33,533 nucleotides of DNA from Actinomycetota bacterium. GTDB taxonomy: Bacteria > Actinomycetota > Thermoleophilia > Solirubrobacterales > 70-9. The translations under genes were made by a program, and so were the position numbers. Below, piece by piece: positions 6,386-30,245 of the stretch. The notes under the pieces were generated by a model. That model had not been told where the DNA came from. It was given only the letters and a program-made list of their open reading frames with translations, and did no database searches. Position 1 is the stretch's first letter; each line of letters starts with the position of its first letter. The DNA lies in the NCBI GenBank assembly GCA_018268655.1, contig JAFDWC010000015.1, positions 1-33,533 on the forward strand, given 5' to 3'.

Positions 6386-7717
6386 ATGGCCGACCTGCCG
6401 CAGACGCGGTACGCGGGCAGCGGTGAGATCAGCATCGCTTACCAGGTGTTCGGCGAAGGCGCGCTGGACCTCGTCGTTGCCCTGCCCTGGGTCTCGAACC
6501 TCGACCTGCAGTGGGAAAGTCCGCTGCTCGCCCATTTCTTCCGCCGGCTTGGAGCGTTCGCTCGGGTGATCGTCTTCGACCGCCGCGGCGTCGGGCTCTC
6601 CGACCCGGTCGACGGGGTCGCGACGCTCGAGGAGAGGATGGATGACATCCGCGCGGTGATGGACGCCGCGGGGGCCGAGCGGGCCGCTCTGCTCGGCATG
6701 TCGGAGGGGGCGACGGCCTGCCTCCTGTTCGCCGCGACCTACCCGGAGCGGACCTCGGCGCTGCTGCTCTGGGGGGCGATGGCGCGCTCGACCGAGGACG
6801 AGGACTACCCGTGGGCGGCCTCGAAGGAGGCGCTGATCGAAGCCGGGGTGGAGCTGATCGGTCCGATGTGGGGTCAGGGGGCGACGATCGACATCTTCTC
6901 GCCGAGCCTTGCCGGGGACGAGCGGGCGCGCCAGTACACCGCCCGGATCGAGCGCGGCGCCGGCAGTCCGCTGCGCGTCTGGCAGATCTTGAACATGTTC
7001 CTCGAAACCGACGTCCGCGACGCGCTGCCGCTGATCCAGGCGCCGACCTTGGTGATGCATCGCCGCCACGATCACGCGGTCAACGTCCGCGCCTCGCGCT
7101 GGCTCGCCGCCCAGATCTCCGGCAGCCGCTACGTCGAGTTCGAGGGAGTCGACCACTTCGCCTGGGTCGGCGATGCCGAGGCGCCGCTGGAGACGATCGA
7201 GGAGTTCCTCACCGGCGTCCGTCCCGCGGCCCGGCCCGAGCGGGTGCTGGCGACGGTCGTCTTCACCGACATCGTCGGCTCGACCGAGCGGGCCACCGAA
7301 GTCGGCGACCGGCGCTGGCGCGAGCTGCTCGATCGCCAGCAGGCGCTGGTCCGCGAGCGGATCGCGCTGCAGGAGGGCCGCGAGATCAAGACCACCGGCG
7401 ACGGCTTCCTGGTCACCTTCGACGGCCCAAGCCGCGCGGTCCGCTTCGCCCGCTCGGTCGTGCTCGACGCGCCGGCTATCGGGCTCGAGATCCGCGCCGG
7501 CGCCCACGCCGGCGAGGTCGAGCTGATCGGCGATGACATCGGCGGGATCGCCGTCCATGTCGCCTCGCGGGTCTGCGGCCTTGCCGGCGGCGGCCAGGTC
7601 CTCGCCTCGCGGACCGTGAACGACCTCACCGTCGGCTCCGGCCTCGGCTTCGAGCCGTGGGGCAGGCGCGAGCTGAAGGGCGTCGACGGCGAGTGGGAGA
7701 TTTACGAGGTCCGCTAG
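6386..7717 (+). CDS. Alpha/beta-hydrolase fused to a class III adenylate/guanylate cyclase
   Basis: A 443-residue two-domain protein. Residues about 1-280 are an alpha/beta hydrolase with a full apparent triad: Ser106 in GMSEG, Asp229 in HRRHDH and His257 in GVDHF. Residues about 285-443 are a class III nucleotide cyclase: VVFTDIVGST carries metal Asp295, TTGDGFLVTF carries Asp339, and Lys335 lies just before it. In the transition-state motif Arg395 is kept but the usual Asn is His391 (AVHVASRV), a variant seen in some actinobacterial cyclases. Class III cyclases work as dimers and make cAMP (or cGMP) from ATP (or GTP). The hydrolase part could sense or process a small ester or lactone and gate the cyclase. 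It is cytoplasmic, with no membrane segment. Confidence 0.9.
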   Translation: MADLPQTRYAGSGEISIAYQVFGEGALDLVVALPWVSNLDLQWESPLLAHFFRRLGAFARVIVFDRRGVGLSDPVDGVATLEERMDDIRAVMDAAGAERAALLGMSEGATACLLFAATYPERTSALLLWGAMARSTEDEDYPWAASKEALIEAGVELIGPMWGQGATIDIFSPSLAGDERARQYTARIERGAGSPLRVWQILNMFLETDVRDALPLIQAPTLVMHRRHDHAVNVRASRWLAAQISGSRYVEFEGVDHFAWVGDAEAPLETIEEFLTGVRPAARPERVLATVVFTDIVGSTERATEVGDRRWRELLDRQQALVRERIALQEGREIKTTGDGFLVTFDGPSRAVRFARSVVLDAPAIGLEIRAGAHAGEVELIGDDIGGIAVHVASRVCGLAGGGQVLASRTVNDLTVGSGLGFEPWGRRELKGVDGEWEIYEVR

Positions 7718-12133: not shown

Positions 12134-13249
12134 GTGCCGGTGCTGTCGCTGGGCGAGAGCCGGAGCAGATCGTGGTCGCGGGACTGGGCGACCGAGGCGG
12201 TGGCGCGGCTCGAGGCGGACAGCAACCGCTCGGGGGAGACCCACCTGCGGAGCTTCCCGCTGCCGGTTGAGTGGGGGATCGACCTCTACCTGAAGGACGA
12301 GTCGGTCCACCCGACGGGCTCGCTCAAGCACCGCCTCGCGCGCTCGCTCTTCCTCTATGGGATCTGCAACGGCTGGATCGACGAGGGGACCACGATCGTC
12401 GAGGCGTCCAGCGGCTCGACCGCGGTCTCGGAGGCGTTCTTCGCGCGCTTCCTCGGCCTGCCCTTCGTCGCCGTCCTGCCCGCGGACACCAGCCCCGAGA
12501 AGATCCAGCTGATCGAGCGGCAGGGGGGCGCCTGTCACCTGAGCGAGGACCCGAGCCAGATCGTCGCCGAGGCGGAACGGCTGGCCAGCGGGCCCGAGGC
12601 CCATTTCATGGACCAGTTCAGCTACGCCGAGCGGGCGATGGACTGGCACGGCAATCACAGCATCGCGGCATCGATCTTCGGTCAGATGGAACTGGAGCGC
12701 CATCCCGACCCGGAGTGGATCGTGGTCGGCGCCGGCACCGGGGGGACCAGCGCGACGATCGGCCGCTACAGCCGGCTGACCAAGCGCGCCACCCGGCTCT
12801 GTGTCGTCGATCCCGAGGACTCGATCTTCTACGCGAGCTGGGCCGGTGAGCCCTCGGCGTTCAGCGGCCGCCCGTCGCGGATCGAGGGCATCGGCCGCCA
12901 GCGGGTCGAGCCGTCGTTTCTCCCCGGCGTCGTCGACCGCATGATCCAGGTCCCGGATGCAGCCTCGGTCGCGGCGATGCGCCTGGTCAACGACTGCACC
13001 GGCTATCTCGTCGGCGGCTCGACCGGCACCAATGCCTGGGGAGCGCTGCGGCTGGTCGGCGAGATGCTCGAGGAAGGGCGTGAAGGCAGCGTCGTCACCT
13101 TGATCTGCGACGGTGGCGAGCGCTACCAGGGCACCTACTACAACGACCTCTGGGTCGAGGCCGAGGGCCTCGACCTCACCCCCTACTCAGAGGCCCTCCG
13201 GGCCTTCCTCGAGCGGGGCGTGTTCGAGGAAGCCGGGCCGTTCGCCTGA
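12134..13249 (+). CDS. cds1: PLP-dependent cysteine desulfhydrase/cysteine-synthase family (Cds1-like)
   Basis: A 371-residue fold-type II PLP enzyme. [20 protein letters not shown] carries the PLP lysine (Lys65), [13 protein letters not shown] is the substrate-carboxylate loop (about 90-102), and [15 protein letters not shown] is the phosphate-binding Gly loop. The [20 protein letters not shown] stretch and the length match the Cds1 group (actinobacterial L-cysteine desulfhydrase) better than housekeeping CysK/CysM. Cds1 degrades cysteine to sulfide, pyruvate and ammonia in the cytoplasm. The start is GTG at 12134 or, more likely if leaderless, GTG at 12140, which lies 6 nt after CAAACT. It is divergent from the beta-helix gene and convergent with the DUF1059 gene. 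The exact reaction is inferred from family resemblance. Confidence 0.85.
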
Positions 13250-13253
13250 GAAC

Positions 13254-13439
13254 CTAGGCGGCCGGGTCGACCTCGGTGATCACGCCCTGGATCTGATCGA
13301 CGACCTCGGGCGGGACCTCGTCCATCCCGTGGACGTCGCGGGCGTGATCGTGGATCTCCTCGAACAGCTCCGCTTCGTCGTCGTTGCGGGCGACCCACTC
13401 GCAGCCCAGCACGACGTCGCCACATTTGAATTGCTTCAT
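13254..13439 (-). CDS. DUF1059 small protein
   Basis: A 61-residue protein, MKQFKCGDVVLGCEWVARND then EIHDHARDVHGMDEVPPEVV. The C-G-D-x-V-x-G-C motif near the N-terminus and the H-x-H/H-G pair in the middle are typical of DUF1059 and could bind a metal. The function of the family is not established. AGGGGAAG lies just before the ATG at 13439. It ends 4 nt from the end of the convergent cysteine desulfhydrase gene. Confidence 0.8.
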   Translation of the reverse strand: MKQFKCGDVVLGCEWVARNDDEAELFEEIHDHARDVHGMDEVPPEVVDQIQGVITEVDPAA

Positions 13440-13512: not shown

Positions 13513-13524
13513 TACGATTGTCGC
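13513..13524 (+). promoter_or_regulatory. Leaderless -10 box for the amidotransferase gene
   Basis: TACGAT (13513-13518) lies 6 nt before the GTG at 13525. No ribosome-binding site is present. The family requires Cys as the second codon, which fixes this start independently. Confidence 0.55.
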
Positions 13525-14445
13525 GTGTGCCGGATCCTCGCCTACCTGGGTGACCCCCTGCCCGTCCACCGGCTGCTCTACGAGACCGACAACGGCCTCG
13601 TCCACCAGTCCCACAGCCCGCGGATGATGAACAAGTTCCTCAACCTGGCGGGCTTCGGGATGAAGGCGTGGGACCCGGCTTCGCTGCATCCGCAGGAGCC
13701 GTTCAGCTACCAGGCGACGACCCTGCCGTCCTACGACCGCAACCTCCGCTCGATCTCCTCGAAGCTCGGCTCGACCTGCCTCGTCGCCCACGTCCGCGGC
13801 GTCACCTATTCGAGCGAGTCGGCGGTCGCCGAGACCAACCTGCACCCGTTCCAGTTCGCCGGTGCCGGTGTCGCGCTCGCCCACAACGGCCATCTGCGGC
13901 AGTTCGGGCGGATGCGGTACGCCCTGATCGATCACGTCAGGCCGGAGCTGGCGCAGCGAATCGAGGGCACGACCGACTCGGAGTGGATCTACGCGCTCGT
14001 CCTCTCGCAGCTCGACGACCCCTTCGGTCGACCGCCGGCCGCCGAGCTGGCCGAGGCCACCCTCGCCGCCCTCCGGGTCCTGCGTCAGCTCCGCGCCGAG
14101 CACGGCATCGACACCTCCTCGCCGGTCAACCTCTGTCTCAGCACCGGCGAGGCGCTGGTCGCGACCCGCGTCTCCTTCGACTATGGCTGGTATCCGCCGG
14201 ATGACGAAATGCTCGAGACCGACCTGCCGTTCGTCAGCCTCTGGTACGCGATCGGCGGCGAGTACGTGAGCCGGGACGGGGACTGGCAGATGACCGCGGC
14301 GGACCCGGTGCGCTCGCTGCTGATCGCCTCCGAGCCGCTGACCGAGGACCTGTCCGGCTGGTTGGAGGTGCCGGAGTACTCGATGCTGACCGCCGAGCTG
14401 ACGCCGGCGGGGCTCGCGTTCGGGACCCGCGACCTCGATGTCTGA
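13525..14445 (+). CDS. Stand-alone class II glutamine amidotransferase (EgtC/YafJ-like)
   Basis: A 306-residue Ntn-type amidotransferase. Cys2 (MCRILAYLG) would be the N-terminal nucleophile after Met removal. VAHVRGVT carries Arg91, HPFQF and ALAHNGHLRQF carry the conserved His107 and Asn121-Gly122, and TTDSEW (149-154) matches the conserved Asp-Ser-Glu segment. No synthetase or acceptor domain is attached, as in the EgtC/YafJ/DUG3 group, which hydrolyse gamma-glutamyl amide bonds. No egtB or egtD is near, so ergothioneine synthesis is not supported and the substrate is unknown. The stop overlaps the next gene by 8 nt, suggesting coupled translation. The start is fixed by Cys2 and by TACGAT 6 nt upstream. 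Confidence 0.88.
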   Translation: MCRILAYLGDPLPVHRLLYETDNGLVHQSHSPRMMNKFLNLAGFGMKAWDPASLHPQEPFSYQATTLPSYDRNLRSISSKLGSTCLVAHVRGVTYSSESAVAETNLHPFQFAGAGVALAHNGHLRQFGRMRYALIDHVRPELAQRIEGTTDSEWIYALVLSQLDDPFGRPPAAELAEATLAALRVLRQLRAEHGIDTSSPVNLCLSTGEALVATRVSFDYGWYPPDDEMLETDLPFVSLWYAIGGEYVSRDGDWQMTAADPVRSLLIASEPLTEDLSGWLEVPEYSMLTAELTPAGLAFGTRDLDV

Positions 14446-15412
14446 CGCCGCGACGGTCGACTTCCTCGCCGCGCTGCCGCTGTTCGAGGGGTTCGATCGC
14501 GCGGGGCTCGAGCGGTTGGCCGGGGTCGTGCGCCGGCGCCGGGTCAGGGCCGATCAGGTCCTCTGGCGCCAGGGAGAGGGGGCGCGCGAAATGTTCTTCG
14601 TCCTCGACGGGGCCGTCGCCGAGATCCTCGGCCTGCCGGGAGGGCGGACCAGGGAGGTCGGTCGCGCCTCCGCCGGGGAGACCCTGGGGGAGGTCGAGCT
14701 GCTCGACGGTGTCGGGCATCCGACCGAGGCCCGCGCCGCCAGCGACGCCACCCTCCTCAGCCTCGGCCGGCTCGGCTTCACCGATCTCCTCGCCGGGCAG
14801 GAAGCGTCCGTCTTCGCCTTCCGGCGCCACCTGGCCGAGCTGTTCACGACCCGCCTCCGAGCCGAGCTCGGCCTCGTCTCCGAGGCGCTCGGGGGAGAGA
14901 TCGCGGGCCCCACCGGCGACGACGCCGTTCACACCTTTTCCGAGCTGGAGGAGCGCCCCGCCCCGGACAGCGCCTACGTGCGGCGGATGGCGTCCTTCCA
15001 CGGGGTCGACCCGCTCGCGCTGTGGGGCTTCCTCACCTCGGGGCGCTACGTCTACTGCCCGCAGGGGCGCGTCCTCCTCGCCGAGGGCGCGCCCCCGCCC
15101 GCCTACTACCTGACCATCAACGGCGCCGTCGAGAAGGTCCTGGTCCGCGGCCACCGGCGCGTCCGGGTCGGGCTGGCCGGCCCCGGCAGGGCGTTCGGCG
15201 GCGAGGCTCTGATCGACGGCCTGCCCTCGCCGCTGACCGCGGTGGCGAGGGAGCGCTCGCTGCTCCTGGTCATCCCCGCCGAGATCTTCGAGCGCCTCTT
15301 CCACGGTGAGGACGCCGTCTCGCGGGTCTTCCTCGAAGTGGTCCTCAGGGACCTCGCAAGCGTCGTGCGCGAGGCCCTGCGTCCATACGCACGGGTGCTG
15401 CTCGCGACCTGA
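14438..15412 (+). CDS. Tandem cyclic-nucleotide-binding-like domain protein without output domain
   Basis: A 324-residue protein with two cNBD folds. The first (about 8-125) opens FLAALPLFEGFDRAGLERLA and has the beta-roll signature RRRRVRADQVLWRQGEGARE..FFVLDGAV. The second (about 195-315) reads YVYCPQGRVLLAEGAPPPAYYLTINGAVEKVL. Each phosphate-binding cassette is present in outline (GETLGEVELLDGVGHPTEARAA; GGEALIDGLPSPLTAVA), but the Arg that usually binds the cyclic phosphate is not evident in either. They may bind another ligand or none. There is no helix-turn-helix, kinase, channel or other output domain. The ATG lies inside the last codons of the amidotransferase gene, so the two are very probably one operon and possibly partners. 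Confidence 0.85.
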   Translation: MSDAATVDFLAALPLFEGFDRAGLERLAGVVRRRRVRADQVLWRQGEGAREMFFVLDGAVAEILGLPGGRTREVGRASAGETLGEVELLDGVGHPTEARAASDATLLSLGRLGFTDLLAGQEASVFAFRRHLAELFTTRLRAELGLVSEALGGEIAGPTGDDAVHTFSELEERPAPDSAYVRRMASFHGVDPLALWGFLTSGRYVYCPQGRVLLAEGAPPPAYYLTINGAVEKVLVRGHRRVRVGLAGPGRAFGGEALIDGLPSPLTAVARERSLLLVIPAEIFERLFHGEDAVSRVFLEVVLRDLASVVREALRPYARVLLAT

Positions 15413-26341: not shown

Positions 26342-29039
<2,698 letters not shown>

Positions 29040-29111: not shown

Positions 29112-30245
29112 GTGGCTCGACGGGTCCTCATCCTCGGCGCAGGCTTCGGCGGGCTGGAGATCGCGACGCTGCTCTCGCGCGCGGCCGCGGAGGAGATCGA
29201 GGTGACCCTGATCGACAAGGGCGAGGGGTTTGTCTTCGGCTTCTCCAAGCTCGACGTCCTCTTCGGCCGCGCCGGCGTCGCCGATGTGCGGATTCCCTAC
29301 GCCCAGATCGACAAGCCCGGGGTGCGGGTGGTGCGGGAGACGATCACCGCGATCGACCCCGAGGCGCGGCGGGTGACCACCGACTCCGGCAGCTACGAGA
29401 GCGAGGCGATGGTGATCGCGCTCGGCGCTGACTACGACTTCGACGCCACCCCCGGCCTGGCCGCGGGCGGCCACGAGTTCTACTCGGTCCCGGGCGCCGA
29501 GCGGGCGGCCGCGGCGGTGGCGGCCTTCGACCGCGGCGATGCCGTGATCGGGGTCTGCGGGGCGCCCTTCAAGTGCCCGCCGGCGCCGAGCGAGTGCGCG
29601 CTCCTGCTCGACGACGAGCTGCGCGAGCGCGGCGTCCGCGACGCCTGCACGATCTCCTTCGTGATCCCGTTCGGCTCGCCGGTGCCGCCCTCGCCGGAGA
29701 CCTCGGCGGCGCTCGAAGGCGAGTTCGCCGAGCGCGGGATCGGCCTGATCACCGGCCGCCGCGTCGCCGCGCTCGACTCCGACCGCAGCGTCGCCGTCCT
29801 CGACGACGGCCGCGAGCTCGGCTTCGACCTCTTCCTCGGCGTCCCCAAGCACCGCGCCCCCGACGTCGTGATCGCCAGCGGCGCCACCGAGGACGGCTTC
29901 GTCCCGGTCGACCCGGCGACGCTGCGGACCCGCTTCGCCGGCGTCTACGCGGTCGGCGACGTCGCCACCGCCGGGGTGCCGAAGGCGGGCGTCTTCGCCG
30001 AGGGCGCCGGCCGCATCGTCGCCCAGGCGCTGCTCGCCGAACTGCTCGGCGCCGAGCCGCCCGGCCGCCACCTCGGCCAGGGCACCTGCTACATCGAGTT
30101 CGGCTCCGGCCGCGTCGCCAGCGTCGACATCGACTTCCTCTCCGGGCCCGAGCGCACCGGCACCTTCAACGCCCCCTCGCCGGCCCAGGCCGCCGAGAAG
30201 GAGGAGTTCGGCGCGAGTCGCCGCCAGCTCTGGTTCGGCGCCTGA
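29112..30245 (+). CDS. FAD/NAD(P)-dependent oxidoreductase, SQR/FCSD-like
   Basis: A 377-residue flavoprotein of the sulfide:quinone reductase/flavocytochrome-c flavoprotein group. RRVLILGAGFGGLEIA (GxGxxG, 9-14) binds FAD; RFAGVYAVGDVATAGVPKAG is the second FAD motif; GVPKHRAPDVV is typical of the group. FKCPPAPSEC holds two cysteines (about 156 and 163) that could form the redox-active disulfide of SQR, though a third Cys is absent in the usual place. It probably oxidises sulfide, persulfide or a similar donor and passes electrons to quinone. The C-terminus lacks an obvious membrane anchor. The start is GTG at 29112, leaderless. Together with Cds1 (a sulfide producer) it suggests sulfide handling, but the two are 16 kb apart. 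Confidence 0.85.
   Translation: MARRVLILGAGFGGLEIATLLSRAAAEEIEVTLIDKGEGFVFGFSKLDVLFGRAGVADVRIPYAQIDKPGVRVVRETITAIDPEARRVTTDSGSYESEAMVIALGADYDFDATPGLAAGGHEFYSVPGAERAAAAVAAFDRGDAVIGVCGAPFKCPPAPSECALLLDDELRERGVRDACTISFVIPFGSPVPPSPETSAALEGEFAERGIGLITGRRVAALDSDRSVAVLDDGRELGFDLFLGVPKHRAPDVVIASGATEDGFVPVDPATLRTRFAGVYAVGDVATAGVPKAGVFAEGAGRIVAQALLAELLGAEPPGRHLGQGTCYIEFGSGRVASVDIDFLSGPERTGTFNAPSPAQAAEKEEFGASRRQLWFGA

What the first reader, a model, noticed from the sequence alone, without database searches (positions are those of the whole stretch)
13525..15412. Coupled amidotransferase and tandem cNBD-like protein: a possible ligand-gated amidotransferase
A stand-alone class II (Cys2) glutamine amidotransferase overlaps by 8 nt a protein made of two cyclic-nucleotide-binding folds and nothing else. 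EgtC/YafJ-type enzymes are known for gamma-glutamyl amide hydrolysis, but none of the usual partner genes is near. The cNBD protein has no DNA-binding, kinase or channel output, so the natural output is the neighbouring enzyme. Both phosphate-binding cassettes lack the evident Arg, suggesting a ligand other than cAMP or a purely protein-protein role.
Basis: partly seen in the sequence, partly recalled or inferred. Interest (0 to 1): 0.62.

Follow-up and report, generated by a model that had tools for sequence, protein, structure and literature searches.

The report
Amidohydrolase with separate cNMP-type regulator
Two overlapping genes, an EgtC-like enzyme and a protein made only of two cyclic-nucleotide-binding folds, stay together in distant bacteria, which suggests a two-part switchable enzyme for gamma-glutamyl (thiol) compounds, although binding and activity remain untested.

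Summary
An intact class II (Ntn) amidotransferase (13525-14445) overlaps by 8 nt a protein of two cNMP-binding folds and nothing else (14438-15412).

The pair is conserved: 12 loci in 11 genomes of the class, every one intact enough to read, always with overlapping genes. It also occurs, in reversed order, on a Legionella adelaidensis plasmid, where a GCS2/YbdK gamma-glutamyl ligase overlaps the cNBD gene. Other amidotransferases checked lack such a partner.

The enzyme is EgtC-like but not EgtC: it scores far below the family cut-off, ergothioneine genes lie elsewhere, and two pair-bearing genomes show no EgtD.

A metabolic neighbour exists: a Cds1-type cysteine desulfhydrase lies just upstream here and in three relatives. 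The missing phosphate-binding Arg is not a family trait: domain 1 keeps it in one clade and carries His in the window's clade; domain 2 is degenerate throughout. Class III cyclases sit near the pair more often than chance (4 seen, 0.3 expected).

Best reading: a gamma-glutamyl amidohydrolase with a trans-acting tandem-cNBD regulatory subunit, ancestrally cyclic-nucleotide-sensing, with altered ligand use in the window's clade. Complex, substrate and ligand are unproven.

The parts
12134..13249 (+). Cds1-type PLP-dependent L-cysteine desulfhydrase, conserved upstream neighbour
   Evidence: NF052478 554 bits (cut-off 600), PALP 5.5e-53; orthologue adjacent in G241 (615 bits, over the cut-off), G300, G375
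13254..13439 (-). DUF1059 small protein, divergent from the amidotransferase
   Evidence: PF06348 2.5e-21; conserved in place in G241, G300, G768, G375
13513..13518 (+). TACGAT, candidate -10 element six bases before the start codon (leaderless-type promoter)
   Evidence: TANNNT 5-6 nt before the start in all six clade A loci; the sigma-70 scan found nothing; inference only
13525..14445 (+). Class II (Ntn) glutamine amidotransferase / gamma-glutamyl amidohydrolase, EgtC/YafJ-like, Cys2 nucleophile
14438..15412 (+). Stand-alone tandem cNBD protein, proposed regulatory subunit
14537..14794 (+). cNBD 1 (residues 34-119)
   Evidence: Pfam PF00027
14687..14728 (+). Phosphate-binding cassette 1, GEVELLDGVGHPTE: Glu85 kept, Arg position is His94
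15053..15301 (+). cNBD 2
   Evidence: PF00027
15194..15232 (+). Phosphate-binding cassette 2, FGGEALIDGLPSP: degenerate (no Glu at the consensus position, Arg to Ser)

Best explanation
The two genes encode a two-subunit enzyme. The amidotransferase is an Ntn gamma-glutamyl amidohydrolase with an intact catalytic set (shown by sequence and fold; substrate inferred). The tandem-cNBD protein is its trans-acting regulatory subunit (inferred), comparable in layout to a PKA regulatory subunit: domain 1 is the sensor and domain 2, whose pocket is degenerate in all members, is the structural or docking domain. Ancestrally domain 1 bound a cyclic nucleotide (canonical cassette Arg in clade B). In the window's clade the phosphate-binding Arg became His, so the ligand is probably a different one (for example a nucleoside) or none. 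Substrates are most likely gamma-glutamyl thiol or amino-acid amides: the cysteine released would feed the adjacent Cds1 desulfhydrase, giving sulfide, pyruvate and ammonia.
For: Pair adjacency in 12 loci in 11 class genomes, overlapping genes throughout (8 nt in clade A, shorter overlaps in clade B), and in Legionella with reversed order, where the cNBD partner is a full-length homologue (121 bits, E 1.5e-36; 98.7% hhalign probability). Twelve other amidotransferases outside the subfamily have no adjacent tandem-cNBD gene. In G210 one deletion removed most of the amidotransferase and cNBD 1 together. Distances of the two proteins correlate, r 0.93. Ntn residues Cys2, Arg91, Asn121-Gly122, Asp151 are invariant and the fold matches EgtC. 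Cds1 is adjacent in four clade A loci but was found in only 1 of 199 class genomes sampled, this one. Legionella has GCS2/YbdK overlapping the cNBD gene. Four class III cyclases lie within 10 kb of the pair against 0.32 expected, P 3e-4; three lie downstream on the same strand.
Against: No physical interaction was tested and no complex could be folded. The substrate is unknown; glutamine itself or another gamma-glutamyl amide fits equally. Cds1 is absent from clade B, G056 and Legionella, so the cysteine link may be a clade-specific association. Myxococcota and Acidimicrobiia-like relatives of the enzyme have no cNBD partner nearby, so the enzyme can exist without it. Cassette residues alone do not settle ligand binding. 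The cyclase statistic used a distance chosen after seeing the data, and small numbers.
Confidence: 0.5

Rival explanations
1. The cNBD protein is a constitutive scaffold or stability subunit: both pockets are dead in this clade and the folds serve only protein-protein contact.
For: Arg lost in both domains here; domain 1 is much less conserved than domain 2 in clade A (51% against 70% identity, 15 of 15 comparisons), while in clade B they are closer (41% against 45%), as expected if sensing was relaxed; the Legionella protein also lacks both Arg residues.
Against: The cassette Glu and the His are conserved in all six clade A members rather than drifting; domain 1 keeps a confidently predicted cNBD fold.
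Confidence: 0.27
2. The genes share an operon and a pathway or stress response but the proteins do not touch; the cNBD protein acts on another target elsewhere in the cell.
For: A conserved operon shows shared function, not contact; clade B neighbours include other cNBD proteins (MFS-cNBD in G282) and cyclases.
Against: Strict adjacency with overlapping genes, two gene orders in two phyla, variable other neighbours, and joint loss in G210.
Confidence: 0.18
3. The enzyme is a lineage-specific EgtC in ergothioneine biosynthesis, with an incidental cNBD neighbour.
For: Best NCBIfam match is TIGR03442 and the best folds are EgtC; the window genome has an EgtD fragment on another contig.
Against: 123-129 bits against a cut-off of 218.65; no EgtD found in G241 (95% complete) or G300; no EgtD gene beside any pair.
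Confidence: 0.04

Closest known systems
EgtC, ergothioneine-biosynthetic Ntn amidohydrolase (PDB 4zfj/4zfk/4zfl), and SPO2029 (PDB 3mdn)
   Same: Ntn fold, N-terminal Cys nucleophile (MCR in EgtC), C-terminal SEP...W motif
   Different: About 20% identical by structure alignment, about 75 residues longer than EgtC, below the EgtC cut-off, no ergothioneine neighbours, tandem-cNBD partner instead
PKA regulatory subunit (tandem cNBD, acts in trans on a catalytic subunit)
   Same: Two tandem cNBDs in a stand-alone protein; top Foldseek hits
   Different: No kinase; no docking/dimerisation or inhibitor segment seen; domain 2 cassette degenerate; 13-17% identity
Kinetoplastid PKA regulatory subunit (nucleoside-binding; PMC10959531)
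   Same: Cassette Arg replaced; in the window Glu87 also occupies the Ala202 position where those proteins carry Glu
   Different: Arg is replaced by His, not Thr or Asn; the Glu is seen only in the window protein, orthologues have Ala or Pro; ligand untested
Bacterial enzymes with a cNBD in the same chain (Bd1971 EAL phosphodiesterase, PMC6717892; mycobacterial acetyltransferase, PDB 4ava)
   Same: cNBD allostery on an enzyme
   Different: There the cNBD is fused; here it is a separate tandem-cNBD protein
Family 2B encapsulins (cNBD in the shell, cysteine desulfurase cargo; PMC8346489)
   Same: NCBIfam ranks this family first for the cNBD protein; a cNBD coupled to cysteine sulfur chemistry
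   Different: No capsid domain here; the match covers only the cNBD part, 45 of 400 bits required

Membership tests
Class II (Ntn) glutamine amidotransferases | Cys2 nucleophile after Met1, conserved Arg, Asn-Gly oxyanion pair and Asp; Ntn fold | tested here: met
   C2, R91, N121, G122, D151 invariant in 10 sequences; GATase_4 47 bits over cut-off 23; fold match to EgtC, GFAT and PurF domains
EgtC (TIGR03442 equivalog) | Score over the family cut-off of 218.65 bits | tested here: not met
   129 bits; none of 13 genomes over the cut-off
EgtC (TIGR03442 equivalog) | Ergothioneine genes with it | tested here: not met
   EgtD on another contig here; none found in G241 and G300; EgtB was not searched separately
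EgtC (TIGR03442 equivalog) | Hydrolyses gamma-glutamyl-hercynylcysteine sulfoxide | not testable with these tools
   needs an enzyme assay
cNMP-binding domain superfamily (PF00027) | cNBD fold | tested here: met
   two stretches, 100 bits; model pLDDT 90.5
Canonical cyclic-nucleotide receptors | Cassette Glu and Arg | tested here: not met
   domain 1 Glu85 but His94; domain 2 neither; clade B domain 1 has both
Crp/Fnr transcription factors | C-terminal helix-turn-helix | tested here: not met
   no HTH family in Pfam; model ends in one long helix 293-323 after cNBD 2
PKA-type regulatory subunit | Acts in trans by binding and controlling a separate catalytic protein | not testable with these tools
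   only genetic linkage is available
L-cysteine desulfhydrase Cds1 (upstream gene) | NF052478 over 600 bits | tested here: inconclusive
   window 554, G375 593, G241 615 bits: orthologues straddle the cut-off
Family 2B encapsulin | HK97-fold shell domain | tested here: not met
   only cNBD positions matched, 45 bits against a cut-off of 400

The most novel reading that the evidence does not exclude
A bacterial counterpart of the PKA regulatory/catalytic split: a stand-alone tandem-cNBD subunit that gates a gamma-glutamyl amidohydrolase in trans, cyclic-nucleotide-responsive in one clade and switched to a non-cyclic ligand in the window's clade, linking second-messenger signalling to cysteine or low-molecular-weight thiol turnover.
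Probability: 0.25. Interest if true: 0.75.

Novelty: new variant of a known kind. Interest (0 to 1): 0.52.

Why it matters
The bacterial cNBD enzymes I know of carry the sensor in the same chain. A conserved, separate tandem-cNBD partner of a metabolic hydrolase would be a new layout of cyclic-nucleotide control. The natural split between Arg-bearing and His-bearing cassettes would also make the evolution of cNBD ligand specificity directly testable. It gives an assignable role to a rare, unassigned EgtC-like subfamily.

Tried and rejected
EgtC assignment rejected. Crp/Fnr regulator rejected (no HTH). Family 2B encapsulin resemblance judged to be shared cNBD only. Nucleoside-receptor signature considered: Glu87 matches the kinetoplastid pattern, but only in the window protein, so not adopted. 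A general absence of the cassette Arg was rejected after adding clade B. A sigma-70 and terminator scan found nothing. The Actinoplanes region ACSP50_3919-3924 (amidotransferase, arginine deiminase, cNBD; PMC7567727) is only loosely alike, with the two genes not adjacent. The G768 locus L089 gave a cNBD hit, but it is a peroxiredoxin-cNBD fusion about 3 kb from an amidotransferase outside the subfamily. The window's cNBD protein has no plasmid match by tblastn; the Legionella partner was found only through the amidotransferase. Co-folding the pair was not possible: the folding tool takes one unaltered chain.

Full report
WHAT IS THERE. The window (contig C66 of G000, a 3.37 Mb, 79% complete genome) holds an amidotransferase gene at 13525-14445 and a cNBD gene at 14438-15412, both on the + strand and overlapping by ATGTCTGA. 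The first is a class II, N-terminal-nucleophile enzyme: MCR start, and invariant Cys2, Arg91, Asn121-Gly122 and Asp151 in ten relatives. Residue roles follow established knowledge of GlmS/PurF-type glutaminase domains. Its model (pLDDT 82) matches EgtC and SPO2029 best. The second protein has two cNMP-binding folds and nothing else; PKA regulatory subunits are its closest folds.

CONSERVATION. The enzyme subfamily is rare: 9 of 399 genomes of the class at E <= 1e-25 and 10 of 232 of the order at E <= 1e-40 with the profile. Every locus that could be read has the cNBD gene directly downstream: G000, G241, G300, G768 (two copies), G056, G375, G237, G282, G771, G783 and G808. The second G768 copy has a run of N inside its cNBD gene, so only its two ends are readable. 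G402 ends at the contig edge. In G210 the first codons of the enzyme run into the cNBD gene at about residue 122, so one deletion took both, and the reading frame of the remainder is interrupted. The coding overlap is 8 nt in six loci (clade A) and shorter in the others. Named records of the same loci are Thermoleophilia, Actinobacteria and Solirubrobacterales MAGs. Because the loci are related by descent, their number is not a number of independent events.

A SECOND PHYLUM. tblastn against plasmids found a 45% identical, full-length enzyme on Legionella adelaidensis plasmid NZ_LR134422.1. There the gene just upstream, 3 nt away, is a 338-aa protein with two cNBDs. The profile of the window's family matches it over nearly its whole length (121 bits; 98.7%). 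Upstream, overlapping the cNBD gene, lies a YbdK-type GCS2 ligase (200 bits). The order is reversed relative to the window, so the association does not depend on one operon arrangement. Outside the subfamily, 12 amidotransferase loci (YafJ-like and others) have no adjacent tandem-cNBD gene; nor has the Myxococcota relative L010, which groups with the subfamily.

NEIGHBOURS. A PLP enzyme at 12134-13249 is a Cds1-type cysteine desulfhydrase (554 bits, cut-off 600; the G241 orthologue passes at 615). It sits directly upstream in G241, G300 and G375 as well, with a DUF1059 gene between on the other strand. In a sample of 199 class genomes only G000 has it, so its presence beside the pair is unlikely to be chance. 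It is absent from the clade B loci, G056 and Legionella. In G056 and G210 the next gene is a fusion of two cNBDs with a SufS-like aminotransferase (903 aa in G056); catalytic-half relatives occur in five other class genomes. Class III cyclases lie downstream on the same strand in G056, G237 and G282, and 5.8 kb upstream in the window: 4 within 10 kb against 0.32 expected, Poisson P 3e-4. The distance was chosen after seeing the data.

THE BINDING POCKETS. At the cassette Arg position of domain 1 the six clade A proteins have His and the six clade B proteins have Arg, mostly within canonical sequences such as GELALLSGGTRTATVRA. Domain 2 lacks Glu and Arg at the cassette positions in the members that can be read there, yet keeps LAGPG and RER motifs. 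In clade A domain 1 is less conserved than domain 2 (51% and 70%); in clade B they are closer (41% and 45%). I infer a cNMP-sensing ancestor, with relaxed or altered sensing in the window's clade. In kinetoplastid PKA, loss of this Arg plus a Glu at the Ala202 position goes with nucleoside binding (PMC10959531). The window protein shows both changes (His94, Glu87), but the Glu is not shared by orthologues, so this is a lead only. The Legionella protein has Ser at the Arg position of domain 1.

NOT EgtC. The best named family is EgtC, but at 123-129 bits against a cut-off of 218.65. EgtD lies on another contig in G000 and was not found in G241 or G300. GCS2 ligases are present in all 13 genomes examined, so gamma-glutamyl compounds could be available, though this family includes enzymes with other products.

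MECHANISM. Shown: an intact hydrolase fold and catalytic set, tandem cNBDs, and strict linkage in two phyla. Inferred: physical complex, control of the hydrolase by the cNBD protein, gamma-glutamyl thiol substrates, ligand change in clade A. A conserved TANNNT 5-6 nt before the enzyme's start codon in six loci suggests a leaderless transcript separate from Cds1; this too is inference.

VERDICT. A real, conserved gene pair, not described in the open literature I could search (searches returned nothing on it; subscription journals are not covered). It is a new variant of a known kind, cNBD-controlled enzymes, with the sensor in a separate chain. The main claim, ligand-gated activity, is plausible and directly testable but unproven.

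Noticed in passing
L027:5610-8321 (-) in G056; L032:10070-11713 in G210: Two cNBDs fused to a SufS-like class V aminotransferase (903 aa in G056); domain 2 has a canonical cassette (GEVALVDGGPRSATCAA). The relatives matched in five other class genomes align only over the catalytic half.
   Followed up: partly
window 6386-7717 (+): Alpha/beta hydrolase fused to a class III adenylate/guanylate cyclase domain.
   Followed up: partly
window 29112-30245 (+); L027:18451-19593 (+): Flavoprotein related to type III sulfide:quinone reductases (183 bits, cut-off 525) in the window; a similar-looking protein lies about 8 kb from the pair in G056. Possibly linked to sulfide from Cds1.
   Followed up: no
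window 26342-28534 (-); L034:2-547 (-); L039:1861-4059 (-): Catalase-peroxidase KatG in the window (with a Fur-family gene beside it) and, by look of the sequence, near two other amidotransferase loci; may be chance.
   Followed up: no
L089:7470-8532 (+) in G768: Peroxiredoxin-like protein with a C-terminal cNBD bearing a canonical cassette, about 3 kb from a YafJ-like amidotransferase and a GCS2 gene.
   Followed up: partly
L030:3258-9414 (-) in G282: Downstream of the pair on the same strand: an MFS-cNBD fusion, a hybrid histidine kinase, and a response regulator with a cyclase domain.
   Followed up: partly
L034:4923-5924 (+) in G300: Arginine deiminase-like gene directly after the pair; in Actinoplanes ACSP50_3919-3924 an amidotransferase, a deiminase and a cNBD protein also lie close together (PMC7567727).
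   Followed up: no
window 13513-13527 (+): TACGAT six bases before the GTG start of the amidotransferase, conserved as TANNNT in six loci: candidate leaderless promoter.
   Followed up: partly
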